DNA from: Natrinema salinisoli | GTDB taxonomy: Archaea > Halobacteriota > Halobacteria > Halobacteriales > Natrialbaceae | Assembly (NCBI RefSeq): GCF_020405205.1 | Contig: NZ_CP084469.1 | Span: 434,001 to 498,000 of the forward strand | Length of the DNA: 64,000 bases | Reading direction: 5' to 3' | Shown: one piece after another, positions 5,269 through 20,869 of the stretch | Layout of the letters: the number at the start of each line of letters is the position of its first letter | How positions within the stretch are numbered: position 1 is the first letter of the stretch | Position numbers and translations under genes: made by a program | The notes under the pieces: generated by a model | Databases searched by the model: none | Told to the model about the DNA's origin: nothing | The model's input: only the letters and a program-made list of their open reading frames with translations

Positions 5269-5928
5269 CTATAGCTCGAGCCAGTCCGTCGTCGTATCGG
5301 TCTCGCGGAGATACCACCGCTGTTCGTCTGTCCCGTTCCGGGAGCGAACCGTGACGACGGCGTCGAACATCGGCTCGAGGAGGTTGACGGCGTCGTGGTC
5401 GGGATCAAGCGGGAGGTGGTAGTGTCCCATCCCGTTCGCCTGATCGACCCGTGCAGTCGTCATGTGCAGCAGACGAAACACCGTCTCGGTGTCGTACGTC
5501 TGCAACAACGGAACGAGCGAATCGACACAGACGCGAAGTTCCGACGGTGAAAATCCGTCCGCCGAATCGTCGAAGTCGTTGATCGTCTCGACGATCTCGA
5601 TCCCGAGCGTTCCCAGCGACGGGCGATCGGTCTCGGTTTCGTCCGTCGCCGTGCCGATCTCGAGTACTTCCCTCGAATCGATCGTCCGAACCCGGTCGGT
5701 CGCAACGTCGTCCCCGTCTCTTGCGGTCGTTCGATCGTCCCCCGCCGTCACGAAGAGTCGGTATCGCGAGTCCCGCTCGTCTGCACCGAGCAGTTGGTGA
5801 CAGGCCGTCTCGTGTGTACCCGCCGCCGCACCGACGAGCAAAATATTGCTCCCCTCCTGCTTGAGCGTACCGAGGGTCCGCGTGAACGACGCACGGTCCG
5901 GCACGACTCCCCCTCGCTCGTCTTCCAT
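5269..5928 (-). CDS. KaiC/RecA-like protein of the DUF7504 type
   Basis: The 219-residue protein begins with RASFTRTLGTLKQEGSNILLVGAAAGTHETAC, which aligns with the first strand and P-loop position of KaiC-like ATPases, but AAAGTHET lacks the invariant GK(T/S). Later segments (TLGIEIVETINDFDDSADGFSPSELRVCVDSL and YDTETVFRLLHMTTARV) follow the haloarchaeal pattern of DUF7504 proteins, a family thought to be derived from RecA/KaiC folds and linked to signalling. ATP hydrolysis is therefore doubtful. A TATA-like sequence (5954-5962, minus strand) is about 30 bases before the start. Confidence 0.8.
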   Translation of the reverse strand: MEDERGGVVPDRASFTRTLGTLKQEGSNILLVGAAAGTHETACHQLLGADERDSRYRLFVTAGDDRTTARDGDDVATDRVRTIDSREVLEIGTATDETETDRPSLGTLGIEIVETINDFDDSADGFSPSELRVCVDSLVPLLQTYDTETVFRLLHMTTARVDQANGMGHYHLPLDPDHDAVNLLEPMFDAVVTVRSRNGTDEQRWYLRETDTTTDWLEL

Positions 5929-13142: not shown

Positions 13143-13916
13143 TTACTCGGACGGTTCGTCGTCGGCTTCGTCCTCGTCCTCGCCCGTATCGAGGAGGTCG
13201 TTCTCCTCGAGATGAGACTGGATCCGGTCGCGGTCGAACTGTTCGAAGGATTCGGTTTCGACGTCGACGGTCGCCAGCCCCACTTCGTTGGGGAGCAGGG
13301 AACCGTCGTTGACGGACGCGAGCGCGTCGAGGGCGAGCTGGATGCCGCCGTCGAGGTCGGCCTCGTCGTCGTAGTTCTCCTCGAGGTAGGTCTGGAGTTC
13401 GCCGCGGTCGGAGCCGACGGCGAGCGCCTTCCACTCGTAGGGCGTCCCCGAGGGGTCGGTCTCGAACAGGCGCGGTTCGCCGTTGTCGATGCCGCCGACG
13501 ATCAGCGCGACGCCGAACGGTCGGGCGCCGCCGACCTGGGTGTACTGCTGGATGTGGTCGGTGACTTCCTTGGTCAGCGTCTCGACGCCGATCGGTTCGC
13601 CGTAACGTAGCTGGTTGACCTGCGTCTGGCGGCGCGCGAAGTCGATCAGCTGGCGGGCGTCAGCGACGTGGCCCGCGCTGGCGATCCCGACGTGGTCGTC
13701 GGCCTTGTGGATCTTCTCGACGCTCGAGTCCTCGAGGAGCGGTGACGGAACTCGCTTGTCGACGGCGAGGACGACGCCGTCGTTCGTTCGGACACCGATA
13801 CTCGCCGTGCCTCGTTTGACCGCCTCGCGAGCGTACTCGACCTGGTAGAGTCGGCCGTCGGGCGAGAAGATCGTGATGCCGCGGTCGTATGCCTGCTGTT
13901 GTTGTTGTCCCTGCAT
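13143..13916 (-). CDS. psmA: Proteasome subunit alpha
   Basis: The 257-residue protein carries the alpha-subunit N-terminal helix H0 (AYDRGITIFSPDGRLYQVEYAREAVKRGTASIGV) that gates the 20S core, followed by the Ntn-hydrolase fold (VVLAVDKRV, GVALIVGG, YKALAVGSDRGELQTYLEENY-like segment). Alpha rings are not catalytic. It has a Gln-rich start (MQGQQQQQAYD) and an acidic C-terminal tail. It is the last gene of the operon rnp3-methyltransferase-rnp2-psmA; only 4 bases separate it from rnp2. Confidence 0.96.
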   Translation of the reverse strand: MQGQQQQQAYDRGITIFSPDGRLYQVEYAREAVKRGTASIGVRTNDGVVLAVDKRVPSPLLEDSSVEKIHKADDHVGIASAGHVADARQLIDFARRQTQVNQLRYGEPIGVETLTKEVTDHIQQYTQVGGARPFGVALIVGGIDNGEPRLFETDPSGTPYEWKALAVGSDRGELQTYLEENYDDEADLDGGIQLALDALASVNDGSLLPNEVGLATVDVETESFEQFDRDRIQSHLEENDLLDTGEDEDEADDEPSE

Positions 13917-16054: not shown

Positions 16055-16873
16055 TTAGTTGAGAATCGACTGTGCAACCGTCGCGAGCTGGCCGTTGTCG
16101 GCCTCGCTGAGGCGGTCGTCGCCGATTTTCAGGCGGAGCCGCGGACGACCGACGTCGATGGGAACCTTCTCGGTGTCGATCAGGCCCATGTCCTCGAGCT
16201 TGGTCTTCGTGCGGGAGAACGTCGCCTTGGAGGCGATCCCGACGTCCTCGCCCCATTTGCTGATGTCGTAGAGCAGGGCCTCGTTCTTGGCTGCCACGAG
16301 CAGCGAGATGGTCACTTCGTCGAGGCCGTCGCCGTCGCCGCGAGCGGTCTCGAGCGAGTTGAGGATGGCGGTGAAGTCTTCCTCGGCGGCGGGACTGATC
16401 TCGTCGGAGAGGGTTTCGCGGACGTTCGTGATCGGCGGCGTCCGGAGGTTGAAGTCGGCGGCGTCCTCCCAGCGACCGGCGTACGTGTCGTAGGTGTCCT
16501 CGACGAAGCTGTCGTCGTCGGTAATGAGTCCGCCGACGCGGTCGCCAGCGTGGACGAGTGCGATGACGCGGTCCTCGCTGACGAGCAGCGAGTTCTCGGG
16601 TGCCTCGTCGAGGGTTCGCAGCGAAAGCGCACCCTCGCTGATGAGGTCGGCGGCGTTCGAGGCGACGATGAAATCGTCCATGACGTCTTTCAGCGTCCGC
16701 TCGTCGGCGAGCATGTGTACCGACGGCAGGTCCCCGTCGAACGCGGTCGCGACGGAAACGAACTCTTCGATGGCGTCCCGCGACGGGTTAACCATGTACA
16801 CGTCACCGCTCGCATCCTCGAGGACGGACTCGAGGATATCGTCAATCTGGTGGTTTAGTAAATTCGAGGTCAT
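16055..16873 (-). CDS. tbsP: Transcriptional regulator TbsP
   Basis: The 272-residue protein matches the haloarchaeal TbsP/DUF5821 family from its first residues (MTSNLLNHQIDDILESVLEDASGDVYMVNPS). The N-terminal 150 residues look like a sensor or phospholipase-D-like regulatory domain (PSVHMLADERTLKDVMDDFIVASNAADLI). Residues about 195-250 form a winged helix (VTISLLVAAKNEALLYDISKWGEDVGIASKATFSRTKTKLEDMGLI). TbsP works with TrmB in haloarchaea on glyceraldehyde-3-phosphate dehydrogenase (gapII) control. The family assignment is from memory of the sequence pattern. A TATA-like box lies at about 16904-16914 (minus strand). Confidence 0.78.
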   Translation of the reverse strand: MTSNLLNHQIDDILESVLEDASGDVYMVNPSRDAIEEFVSVATAFDGDLPSVHMLADERTLKDVMDDFIVASNAADLISEGALSLRTLDEAPENSLLVSEDRVIALVHAGDRVGGLITDDDSFVEDTYDTYAGRWEDAADFNLRTPPITNVRETLSDEISPAAEEDFTAILNSLETARGDGDGLDEVTISLLVAAKNEALLYDISKWGEDVGIASKATFSRTKTKLEDMGLIDTEKVPIDVGRPRLRLKIGDDRLSEADNGQLATVAQSILN

Positions 16874-17104
16874 GCCTATACAGAAGTAATCGAGAGCAGC
16901 CTACTTAATTTTGGTGGCCGTTTGCACACCAGAACTTCTCCTCTCGGGCCTGTACCGGTAATTTTTGTCCCATAATTCATTAGTTCGCCGATGAATGATG
17001 GCTATCACTTACATGCCTCGACGAACGTTGAACGCCACTGTCGGTAATTCGATCAATCGCCGCGGCGTATGACGATCGTCTGACTGGTATCCGCATCACC
17101 AATA

Positions 17105-17113
17105 TCTATATAT
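17105..17113 (+). promoter_or_regulatory. TATA box before 45-codon ORF
   Basis: TCTATATAT is one of the clearest TATA matches in the window and is centred about 29 bases before the ATG at 17138. No other plus-strand start lies nearby, so it argues for a real transcript here. Confidence 0.55.
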
Positions 17114-17137
17114 TGGAAGCGTGTTAGTCGGTATCGT

Positions 17138-17275
17138 ATGGGTGTTCGACATGTACGACCGTGGTGGGTCGTTCAGGAGCTGGTCGACGGAGCGCGAACG
17201 ATGCTAGAGACCGATCGTCCGACGGGGCGGTTTCCCGCACGAGCGAAGCGCGTCAGTACGTACGGCGGGCCGTAA
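17138..17275 (+). CDS. Possible small leaderless gene, 45 codons
   Basis: An ATG at leaderless distance from a strong TATA box opens a 45-residue frame beginning MGVRHVRPWWVVQELVDG, with a possible amphipathic helix (WWVVQELVDGARTMLE) and a basic end. It stops 6 bases before the convergent stop of the CHAT gene. I recognise no family. The frame could be chance, or the promoter could drive an RNA antisense to the CHAT 3' end. Confidence 0.35.
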   Translation: MGVRHVRPWWVVQELVDGARTMLETDRPTGRFPARAKRVSTYGGP

Positions 17276-17281
17276 ACGTAG

Positions 17282-19465
17282 TCAGCGTTCGAACTGGCGA
17301 CTCAGTTCTTTCGACCAGTAGATATCCCCGTCGTAGATCACCGACGCCGCCGTTTCGTCGAGCATGGTTGCGAGCGCCGACTCCGTGAGGGTGAAACTCG
17401 ATTCGTTCCCGCAGAGGTGGGCGTACTCGTTACCGTCGGTGTGGGGGAAATAGTACGAGCCGGTCACCCGCGTGGAGTAACAATCGAGCGTCAGCAGGTA
17501 CCGGCGTTCGCCATCGGCTTCGTCGAGTTCCTCGAGTTTCGCAGTCGTCGGAAGCTGGTTTTCACCCTGAACGAGCGAGTGGGTGCCGTCTCCGACGACG
17601 GCGTAGTCTTTGCCCATCATGATTCGCCTGCGGGCGAGTCCCATCGCCCGCTCGATGCTGAAGCCGTGGACCAGCAGTTTGGCGAACGTCGATCCGACTT
17701 TGACCGCGTGGTCGTTCAGGACTTTCGTGAACGTCACGGCACCGGCGACGATCCCCTTTTCGATCAACTGCATCCCTTCGTAATAGGAGCCACAGGCGTT
17801 GAGGAAGAACGTCTGTGCGTTGCACCGGTCGAGACTCGAGGTCGCGAGCGTCCCGTCGGGACACCGGAGTCCACTGGTCTCGCAGTGGCCGATATAGTGC
17901 ACGAAATCGTGATCGTCCTCGAAGATCCTGGCAAGTGCATCGGTTTCGAGGGACTCCGCGACGGTCACGTCCATGGAGAGGTCCTCCGATCGCTGGCGGT
18001 ATATTTCGGCGACGTCGTCGTGTTCGCCGGCCATCTCGGGATCGTTCAGCACGACGCAGATCGAGGTCGAATCGCTCGCCCGCTCGAGGAAGTCGAGTCG
18101 GTTGTGGTAGGCCTCGGGTGCGGATTTGAAGACGTCGATCGGAACGCCGTCCGCGAGCCAGCCGTGCGCTCGGCCGCCCCGGAGTTCGGGTTTGACGATG
18201 TCCACCGAGGCGACCTGTCCGGTGCTGGCCCTGTAGGAACCGATCGGTCCTCCGCTACTGGCGCCCGTTCGGGGATTGGTTCCGGCTCCGGCCCCTGCGC
18301 CGGGAACGGGTCCCTGACCCCGATAGAAGTCCTCGAGGGAGCGTTCGACCAGTTCCTGCCCCTCGAGTTCGGAGGTTCGAGGGGTGTAAATCATACTCAA
18401 CCGATCGAGCAGGAACGGCAGCGTTTCGACGCTGTCGTAGGTCGGCGTCACGTACGTCGACAGGTGCCACTCCGGGAGGCGGTGTTTGATCGCCGCGTAC
18501 GGGATGTCGAGATACGTAGCGAGTCGATCCTGCAGCGAGGCGTGGTACAGCGCTTCTGCATCGAGCCCGAGGGCATCCAGCAGGCTGCGCTCCGAAAGGT
18601 TCGTTCCGTAGGGGCCGACGTTACGCACCAGGCAGTCCAGGAAGAACGTCTTCCGGAGCAGCCGCTCGACGTCGCGCTCCAGCTCGGGCATCGGTGAAAG
18701 CTCCTTCTCGATCGCGTGATCGAGCAGTCGGAGTCGTGGCCGGGTGCGATCCGACCTGGGTCGGTTCCCGAGCACTTCCTCCGTCGTCCGCACCGTCGCC
18801 TGCACGTAGTACGCCAGCGGCGCAGTCGTGAACAACGACTCGTAGTCCGGCGGGACGACCAGTTCGATCCCGTTATCGGGAGTGTCGGACCGGATGTATT
18901 CCGGGACCTCGAGGGAATCGCCGTGCTCGATCAGCGAGGGATGGCCACGGAGGGTCGGGTACGACCGGTCCGGTCCGTCGGTTTTGTGCGAGGCGGCCAT
19001 GTGGGTGACGGCCTCGGCGATCGCCGACGGGGAGTCGGGGACGGTGATGGTGCCGGCGGGGAACTCGTGGCGGCACCGGACGCCGAGGATAACGCGAGTT
19101 CGGTCGGGAAAGGAGACGATGATCGACTCGTAGTCGTCGGTCTTCTGAATCGTTGCACCGCCGGAAAATCGGAGATAGGCCTTGATCTCCGTGTCGACGT
19201 CGACGACGTACTCGCCGGGAGACAGCGTGAGTGGGTCCCCGCTGGGGTCGAGTTCGTACTGGTCCTCGAGACCGAGCGAGAACGCGTAGACGACCGCGTG
19301 CGGGAACCGGAGCTCGTCCGTCGTCAGGACGATCGTATCGTCGACCGGACGCGAGATGTCGACGCCGGAGTCGTCGACGACGAGTTCGTCACCGTTGACC
19401 GTTAGCTCGGCGTTGTCCGCGTCGGTGACGTGGAGGGTGTCGCCGTCTACCGCCCACTCTATCAT
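17282..19465 (-). CDS. CHAT-domain (caspase-like) protein
   Basis: The 727-residue soluble protein has a CHAT protease fold in its C-terminal third. The catalytic dyad is visible as HYIGH (His527) and FFLNACGSYYEG (Cys558), followed by the typical GIVAGAVTFTKVL, SIERAMGLARRRIMMGKDYAVVGDG segment. Residues 1-380 form one or two further domains with no match I know (N-terminal beta-rich DTLHVTDADNAELTVNGDELVV; a helical middle with ERDVERLLRKTFFLDCLVRNVGPYG). A Gly/Ala/Ser linker (about 383-412) separates them from the CHAT part. CHAT enzymes are cysteine peptidases in programmed death or immunity, cutting a partner protein. No obvious partner or gasdermin is adjacent. Confidence 0.85.
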   Translation of the reverse strand: MIEWAVDGDTLHVTDADNAELTVNGDELVVDDSGVDISRPVDDTIVLTTDELRFPHAVVYAFSLGLEDQYELDPSGDPLTLSPGEYVVDVDTEIKAYLRFSGGATIQKTDDYESIIVSFPDRTRVILGVRCRHEFPAGTITVPDSPSAIAEAVTHMAASHKTDGPDRSYPTLRGHPSLIEHGDSLEVPEYIRSDTPDNGIELVVPPDYESLFTTAPLAYYVQATVRTTEEVLGNRPRSDRTRPRLRLLDHAIEKELSPMPELERDVERLLRKTFFLDCLVRNVGPYGTNLSERSLLDALGLDAEALYHASLQDRLATYLDIPYAAIKHRLPEWHLSTYVTPTYDSVETLPFLLDRLSMIYTPRTSELEGQELVERSLEDFYRGQGPVPGAGAGAGTNPRTGASSGGPIGSYRASTGQVASVDIVKPELRGGRAHGWLADGVPIDVFKSAPEAYHNRLDFLERASDSTSICVVLNDPEMAGEHDDVAEIYRQRSEDLSMDVTVAESLETDALARIFEDDHDFVHYIGHCETSGLRCPDGTLATSSLDRCNAQTFFLNACGSYYEGMQLIEKGIVAGAVTFTKVLNDHAVKVGSTFAKLLVHGFSIERAMGLARRRIMMGKDYAVVGDGTHSLVQGENQLPTTAKLEELDEADGERRYLLTLDCYSTRVTGSYYFPHTDGNEYAHLCGNESSFTLTESALATMLDETAASVIYDGDIYWSKELSRQFER

Positions 19466-19591
19466 TCGGTTGGCTGAATGTCACTGAGACAAGTTAGTTG
19501 TATCGGGCTGAGATGAATTTCCTGGGAAGCCACGTTCGACCGGAACGGATTCCCGACCAGGTAGTGGCTCGACTTGCCGGGGAAGGGTACA

Positions 19592-19598
19592 CTTATAC
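19592..19598 (+). promoter_or_regulatory. TATA box, glyA
   Basis: CTTATAC is centred 27 bases before the ATG at 19622. This supports that start over an in-frame upstream ATG at 19574, which lies upstream of the TATA box. Confidence 0.65.
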
Positions 19599-19621
19599 AG
19601 CCGCCAGACCGCATTTCGGAT

Positions 19622-20869
19622 ATGAACCACGATACGGTTCGGGACGTCGATCCCGCCGTCGCAGACGCCCTCGAGGGCGAGGTAGACCGCCAGCGAGAGA
19701 CGCTACAGATGATCGCCAGCGAGAACCACGCCAGCGAGGCCGTCATCGACGCGCAGGGGAGCGCGCTGACGAACAAGTACGCCGAGGGCTACCCGGGCGA
19801 GCGATACTACGGCGGCTGCGAGTACGCCGACGAGGTCGAAGGCCTCGCGATCGACCGCGCGACGGAACTGTTCGGTGCCGAGCACGTCAACGTCCAGCCC
19901 CACGCGGGGACACAGGCCAATCAGGCAGTCTACTTCGCGATGCTCGAGCCAGGCGACAAGATCCTCTCCCTGGACCTGAACCACGGCGGCCACCTCAGTC
20001 ACGGCCATCCGGCGAACTTCACGGGGCAGCTCTACGAGGTCGAACAGTACGAAGTCGACCCCGAAACGGGCTACATCGACTACGACGATCTCGCGGATCA
20101 CGCCGCCGAGTTCGACCCCGACATCATCGTCTCGGGGTACTCCGCCTACCCGCGCGAGATCGAGTGGGAACGTGTTCAGGCCGCCGCCGACGACGTCGAC
20201 GCGTTCCACCTCGCGGACATCGCCCACATCACCGGCCTCGTCGCCGCCGGCGTCCACCCCTCGCCGGTCGGCATCGCCGACTTCGTCACCGGTTCGACCC
20301 ACAAGACGATCCGTGCCGGTCGCGGCGGGATCGTCATGTGCGACGAGGAGTACGCCGACGACATCGACGCGGCGGTCTTCCCCGGCGGACAGGGCGGCCC
20401 GCTCATGCACAACATCGCCGGCAAGGCCGTCGGCTTCAAGGAAGCCCTCGAGCCCGAGTTCGAGGACTACGCCGAGCAGACGGTCGCGAACGCGAAAGCG
20501 CTCGGCGAGTCCCTCTCGGAGAACGGTCTCTCGCTCGTCTCCGAGGGCACGGACAACCATCTGGTTCTCGTCGACCTCCGCGAGAGCCATCCGGACACCT
20601 CAGGCGGCGACGCCGAAGAGGCGCTCGAGGAAGCCGGCATCGTCCTCAACGGGAACACGGTGCCCGGCGAGACGCGCTCGCCGTTCAATCCGAGCGGTAT
20701 TCGCGCCGGGACGCCGGCGCTGACCACGCGCGGTTTCGACGAGGACGACTGCCGGACGGTCGGCGACCTGATCGCTCGCGTCGTCGACGCTCCCGAGGAC
20801 GAGGCCGTCCTCGAGGACGTCCGTTCGGAGGTTGCGACGCTGTGTGAGGAGAACCCGCTGTACGAGTAA
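19622..20869 (+). CDS. glyA: Serine hydroxymethyltransferase
   Basis: GlyA interconverts serine and glycine while loading a one-carbon unit on folate. The 415-residue PLP enzyme has the N-terminal LQMIASENHASEAVIDAQGS, the YPGERYYGGCEYADEVE signature, and the PLP lysine motif VTGSTHKTIRAGRGGIV. It ends with the C-terminal domain containing GIRAGTPALTTRGFDEDD. It is first of a run of plus-strand genes ending in folD, the next enzyme in folate one-carbon metabolism. Confidence 0.97.
   Translation: MNHDTVRDVDPAVADALEGEVDRQRETLQMIASENHASEAVIDAQGSALTNKYAEGYPGERYYGGCEYADEVEGLAIDRATELFGAEHVNVQPHAGTQANQAVYFAMLEPGDKILSLDLNHGGHLSHGHPANFTGQLYEVEQYEVDPETGYIDYDDLADHAAEFDPDIIVSGYSAYPREIEWERVQAAADDVDAFHLADIAHITGLVAAGVHPSPVGIADFVTGSTHKTIRAGRGGIVMCDEEYADDIDAAVFPGGQGGPLMHNIAGKAVGFKEALEPEFEDYAEQTVANAKALGESLSENGLSLVSEGTDNHLVLVDLRESHPDTSGGDAEEALEEAGIVLNGNTVPGETRSPFNPSGIRAGTPALTTRGFDEDDCRTVGDLIARVVDAPEDEAVLEDVRSEVATLCEENPLYE

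What the first reader, a model, noticed from the sequence alone, without database searches (positions are those of the whole stretch)
17282..19465. CHAT (caspase-like) protein with a new N-terminal half
His527 in HYIGH and Cys558 in LNACGS mark a CHAT peptidase. In bacteria such enzymes work in abortive immunity or death pathways with a partner substrate. Here it is joined to about 380 residues with no recognisable domain, and lies in core genome beside TbsP and glyA without a gasdermin, TPR or nuclease partner. Either it is a conserved archaeal peptidase with a housekeeping role, or its partner is elsewhere.
Basis: partly seen in the sequence, partly recalled or inferred. Interest (0 to 1): 0.65.

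Follow-up and report, generated by a model that had tools for sequence, protein, structure and literature searches.

The report
Haloarchaeal CHAT protease with unclassified N-terminus
Most salt-loving archaea in a broad sample carry a caspase-fold protease family that standard domain searches largely miss; this copy sits at a fixed chromosomal site, while its relatives often sit beside an unstudied signalling-type protein, so it looks like a regulatory protease rather than a virus-defence toxin.

Summary
Confirmed: a 727-aa ORF on the minus strand with His527 and Cys558, invariant in 74 of 74 aligned relatives and in 96 of 109 non-redundant family members. An AlphaFold model matches SAVED-CHAT, separase, gingipain and Craspase, so CHAT is supported although Pfam misses this protein. 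The family occurs in 365 of 391 sampled genomes of the class. This copy belongs to one clade placed between glyA and tbsP. Where it is absent, glyA and tbsP are usually direct divergent neighbours (13 of 15 loci): a clean presence/absence site, so not essential. The N-terminal half folds confidently (pLDDT 93) without a confident PDB match; its R173, D277 and R281 persist in 13 of 13 members that lost the catalytic residues, so it has a role apart from proteolysis. Paralogues, unlike this copy, lie within 1 kb of a DUF7504 gene in 21 of 37 cases (0.34 expected), often with receiver proteins; defence neighbours are rare. Best reading: a regulatory cysteine protease with an N-terminal recognition module. 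Substrate and partner of this copy are unknown; TbsP shows no sign of being a dedicated substrate.

The parts
17282..19465 (-). CDS, 727 aa, CHAT-family protein (stop codon 17282-17284)
   Evidence: conserved in 72 named loci
19067..19465 (-). residues 1-133: beta-sandwich, weak resemblance to supersandwich (galactose-mutarotase-like) folds
   Evidence: model pLDDT 93; VIA Z 8.8 and lower
18368..19063 (-). residues 135-366: alpha/beta domain with conserved R167, P170, R173, H175, P176, D277, R281, W333
   Evidence: best VIA row Z 6.8
18194..18370 (-). residues 366-424: disordered linker of variable length
   Evidence: pLDDT < 50; length varies
17546..18193 (-). residues 425-640: CHAT catalytic domain
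   Evidence: Foldseek and VIA matches
17885..17887 (-). His527 codon
17792..17794 (-). Cys558 codon
17285..17545 (-). residues 641-727: C-terminal beta-rich domain, function unknown
   Evidence: model
16055..16873 (-). tbsP, conserved downstream neighbour
   Evidence: PF19138, PF23336; synteny
16874..17281 (-). gap between the CHAT gene and tbsP; no sign of a gene or known RNA
19574..20869 (+). glyA, conserved divergent neighbour (name from the finding and sequence)
   Evidence: synteny

Best explanation
A CHAT-fold (clan CD) cysteine endopeptidase, probably cytoplasmic. Shown by computation: the caspase-like fold, an invariant His/Cys pair, an N-terminal module kept under separate selection, and a fixed place between glyA and tbsP within one clade. 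Inferred: the N-terminal module (beta-sandwich plus alpha/beta domain) recognises a ligand or partner and controls the protease across the flexible linker; on activation the protease cuts one or a few specific proteins as part of intracellular signalling. For the paralogues the likeliest partner, switch or substrate is the adjacent DUF7504 protein, often with a receiver protein near by. For this copy the partner acts in trans and is unknown. It is more likely regulatory than a phage-triggered suicide protease.
For: Fold: full model pLDDT 82, pTM 0.82; Foldseek SAVED-CHAT E 1.1e-7, separase 1.5e-6, RgpB 3e-5; VIA Z 18.5, 17.7 and 18.3 for these, Craspase 13.6. Catalysis under selection: in 96 of 96 members that keep the pair, N474, G526, C535 and N556 are also invariant; in the 13 that lost it those sites drift together. 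Independent N-half: R173, D277 and R281 in 13 of 13 dead members, W333 in 12 of 13. Regulatory setting: among 95 immediate neighbours of non-tbsP copies, DUF7504 in 16, response regulator in 8, HalX in 4, PAS_9 in 3, HalOD1 in 2; DUF7504 within 1 kb of 21 of 37 non-tbsP copies against 0.34 expected. Inheritance: the tbsP-linked rows fall in one clade, SH-aLRT 99, 43 of its 46 rows with tbsP next door.
Against: No activity, substrate or expression data. None of 13 tbsP-linked copies has DUF7504 within 1 kb, so the signalling partner is argued from paralogues. The H527-C558 distance was not measured (no coordinates given). Several proteases with this fold act in immunity or cell death (recalled; PDB titles name Craspase and caspases), and absence of defence neighbours does not exclude that.
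Confidence: 0.55

Rival explanations
1. It acts on TbsP directly: the protease cleaves TbsP, its conserved downstream neighbour, and so links proteolysis to glucose metabolism.
For: tbsP follows on the same strand in 67 of 72 named-genome loci. A copy outside the tbsP-linked clade (L131) has a divergent TbsP paralogue beside it.
Against: glyA-tbsP adjacency exists without the CHAT gene in 13 of 15 loci, so the neighbourhood is shared core synteny. TbsP from loci with (96 sequences) and without (13) the CHAT gene differs at only 4 weakly distinct sites, with no special linker. The gap is 40-845 nt, unlike a tight operon.
Confidence: 0.1
2. A stress-triggered death or abortive-infection protease.
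For: Closest folds include SAVED-CHAT, Craspase and caspases; multi-copy paralogues occur, also on plasmids (25 records); caspase-like activity linked to stress is reported in Haloferax volcanii (PMC3615174, abstract).
Against: Fixed core locus in one clade; defence neighbours rare; no phage hits; the same abstract argues for housekeeping functions.
Confidence: 0.17
3. A general intracellular protein-turnover peptidase with an N-terminal substrate-binding domain, not signalling.
For: Broad distribution in the class (365 of 391).
Against: Catalytically dead lineages keep the N-half; paralogues adjoin receiver and DUF7504 genes.
Confidence: 0.13

Closest known systems
SAVED-CHAT protease (PDB 8tl0)
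   Same: CHAT domain fold, best structural match (Foldseek E 1.1e-7; Z 18.5, rmsd 2.2 over 168 residues)
   Different: the match covers only model residues 464-633; no SAVED match was seen for the N-half; no PADLOC model hit this protein
TPR-CHAT Csx29 / Craspase (PDB 8d9f, 8eex)
   Same: CHAT fold (Z 13.6)
   Different: no Cas neighbour at this locus; the modelled N-half is beta-sandwich plus alpha/beta, not a TPR array
Separase (PDB 5fc2, 5fby)
   Same: clan CD fold; alignment reaches back to model residue 206-207 (Z 17.7 and 17.4)
   Different: no large helical repeat domain in the model; no sequence match
Gingipain RgpB (PDB 4ief, 1cvr), family C25
   Same: fold (Z 18.3); one of 42 relatives hits Pfam C25 weakly, E 0.19
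   Different: gingipains are secreted (recalled); no signal sequence was noticed here by eye, no predictor was run

Membership tests
CHAT / clan CD peptidase | caspase-like alpha/beta fold | tested here: met
   (predicted model)
CHAT / clan CD peptidase | conserved His then Cys catalytic pair | tested here: met
   74 of 74; 96 of 109 across paralogues
CHAT / clan CD peptidase | match to Pfam PF12770 | tested here: inconclusive
   window protein none; 14 of 42 relatives at E<=1, best 1.5e-5; scores against the curated cut-off not shown there
CHAT / clan CD peptidase | His and Cys close enough for catalysis | not tested
CHAT / clan CD peptidase | peptidase activity | not testable with these tools
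   needs protein
CHAT-based defence system | adjacent immune partner (gasdermin, TPR, Cas or nuclease) | tested here: not met
   tbsP-linked loci show core genes; 95 neighbours of other copies gave only scattered PADLOC hits
DUF7504-linked CHAT pair | DUF7504 gene within 1 kb | tested here: not met
   0 of 13 tbsP-linked copies; 21 of 37 other copies

The most novel reading that the evidence does not exclude
This family is an archaeal protease signalling system: DUF7504 (with HalX or other receivers) switches, or is cut by, a CHAT protease, and some members are pseudo-proteases that act as regulators. One or more members account for the haloarchaeal caspase-like activity whose gene is unknown.
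Probability: 0.22. Interest if true: 0.85.

Novelty: new variant of a known kind. Interest (0 to 1): 0.6.

Why it matters
Caspase-like activity was reported as the dominant proteolysis in Haloferax volcanii with no homologous gene known (PMC3615174, abstract and passages read). A caspase-fold family present in 365 of 391 genomes of the class, and missed by Pfam in 28 of 42 members scanned, gives concrete genes to delete. It also supplies a natural contrast: the same glyA-tbsP site with and without the protease, and lineages where the protease died but the N-terminal module was kept. H. volcanii itself was not shown to carry a member here.

Tried and rejected
TbsP as dedicated substrate: no distinct linker and few differential sites. 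Internal duplication (pseudo-CHAT in the N-half): hhalign of residues 135-366 and 195-366 against 424-640 gave probability under 1%; the structural alignments that reach back to residue 206 leave it open. Gene or RNA in the CHAT-tbsP gap: none seen. Phage relatives: none. Naming genus g43 as Haloferax by plasmid records failed. PF12770 found nothing in the H. volcanii control, which says little, as that model also misses the g43 copy and the window protein. A cluster of upstream neighbours (c4) had no Pfam family (two of its four members scanned) and no similarity to DUF7504. A basic-P1 preference guessed from conserved D475/E481 rests on recalled S1-pocket positions and was not tested. VIA lists: families not listed are not excluded; residues 135-366 were not folded alone, so no claim of a new fold is made. 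Searches for haloarchaeal CHAT proteins in the held papers found none, and none for DUF7504; the library holds only openly licensed papers.

Full report
Observation. The ORF 17282-19465 reads on the minus strand as 727 residues with H527 and C558 as stated. Sequence libraries give nothing for it at E<=10 (Pfam, NCBIfam, PADLOC), and PDB sequence searches give no credible hit, alone or as a profile.

Fold. AlphaFold on a 42-row alignment gave pLDDT 82, pTM 0.82, with residues 366-424 disordered. Foldseek against PDB put SAVED-CHAT first (E 1.1e-7), then separases, gingipain RgpB and, lower, caspases and a Craspase chain. VIA-align gave Z 18.5 to SAVED-CHAT over model residues 464-633 (rmsd 2.2, 168 aligned), 18.3 to RgpB, 17.7 to separase, 16.4 to the DdvA anti-sigma factor, 13.6 to Craspase. 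Fourteen of 42 relatives match Pfam CHAT at E<=1, best 1.5e-5. The H527-C558 distance could not be measured.

N-half. Residues 1-380, folded on a 115-row alignment, gave pLDDT 93.4, pTM 0.89. Foldseek had no match at E<=0.001. VIA's best rows cover about residues 1-133 and are mostly supersandwich-type proteins (Z 8.8 and lower); one row (Cwp6, Z 6.8) covers 135-366. These are weak; I claim neither homology nor a new fold. By hhalign the N-half is not a sequence-detectable copy of the CHAT domain.

Family. tblastn-confirmed relatives: 72 named-genome loci. Over a sample of 391 genomes of the class, 365 match at E<=0.001; the 20 listed negatives also failed with the alignment profile (6 further negatives were not listed or re-tested). 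Outside the class, 4 genomes of one unnamed family (f19) match at E 1e-71 to 1e-82 in a 392-genome phylum sample; their genes lie in another neighbourhood. Copy number reaches six in one genome. Twenty-five plasmid records carry relatives, named there mostly hypothetical protein, once caspase family protein and once CHAT domain-containing protein.

Two selections. In 109 non-redundant rows, 96 keep His and Cys; in all 96, N474, G526, C535 and N556 are invariant too. Thirteen lost the pair; ten of these form one clade (SH-aLRT 100), two are sister rows from one genome, and one is an f19 copy, so at least three losses. The dead rows keep R173, D277 and R281 in 13 of 13 and W333 in 12 of 13. The N-terminal half is therefore maintained without proteolysis. 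Two short fragments (both from L133) were left out of the tree.

Locus. In 67 of 72 named loci tbsP lies downstream on the same strand; of the other five, one (L050) is cut by its contig end. The CHAT gene is divergent from glyA. The tbsP-adjacent rows fall in one clade of 46 rows, 43 with tbsP next door; of the three without, one is the truncated L050. In the 31-genome sample (30 chosen by me for diversity, plus the window's), 15 have a CHAT gene directly beside tbsP and 16 do not. Of 15 tbsP loci read without that CHAT gene, 13 have glyA divergent at 86-365 nt and two have no glyA in the stretch; tbsP loci of eight further genomes without it were not fetched. The gap between CHAT and tbsP is usually about 400 nt and looks non-coding. 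The counts of distances hold some genes more than once, because loci overlap.

Partner. Among 95 immediate neighbours of non-tbsP copies, Pfam found DUF7504 in 16, response regulators in 8, HalX in 4; PADLOC gave six models, each in one protein. The 95 come from a simple gene caller of mine and leave out proteins under 100 or over 700 residues and family members. With genome coordinates for 20 genomes, 21 of 37 non-tbsP copies have DUF7504 within 1 kb against 0.34 expected; 0 of 13 tbsP-linked copies do. Related genomes share these placements by descent, so the Poisson value there is not a true probability. The window's genome holds five DUF7504 genes, one of them in this window.

Function. 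The most economical account is a regulatory CHAT protease with an N-terminal recognition module. Its substrate is unknown. TbsP, a regulator that with TrmB controls gapII in H. volcanii (PMC13286277, passages read), is a neighbour but not a supported substrate. The link to haloarchaeal caspase-like activity (PMC3615174; abstract and passages read) is a testable suggestion only; H. volcanii was not searched directly.

Noticed in passing
window 5269-5928 (-): A DUF7504 protein (PF24336, E 5.5e-55) about 11 kb from the CHAT gene; the family adjoins other CHAT paralogues.
   Followed up: partly
L002 1483-3555 (-) and 3621-4898 (-); same as L173 7967-10039 and 10105-11382: The window genome's second CHAT paralogue lies beside a Cdc6-like AAA ATPase; its close relatives on two Natribaculum plasmid records have no listed gene under the match.
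   Followed up: partly
L134-L138, L188-L191, L199: A clade of ten CHAT pseudo-proteases; in five of them the upstream neighbour is one cluster (c3), an APH-type phosphotransferase by Pfam on one member.
   Followed up: partly
L131 166-984 (-): A TbsP paralogue divergent from a CHAT copy outside the tbsP-linked clade.
   Followed up: no
L140 6762-12241: Two CHAT genes flank one DUF7504 gene.
   Followed up: no
L184-L187: CHAT relatives outside the class in one unnamed family (f19), in a different conserved neighbourhood; one of four has lost the catalytic residues.
   Followed up: partly
window 13143-13916 (-): Looks like a proteasome alpha subunit by eye (recalled, not searched), about 3.4 kb from the CHAT gene.
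   Followed up: no
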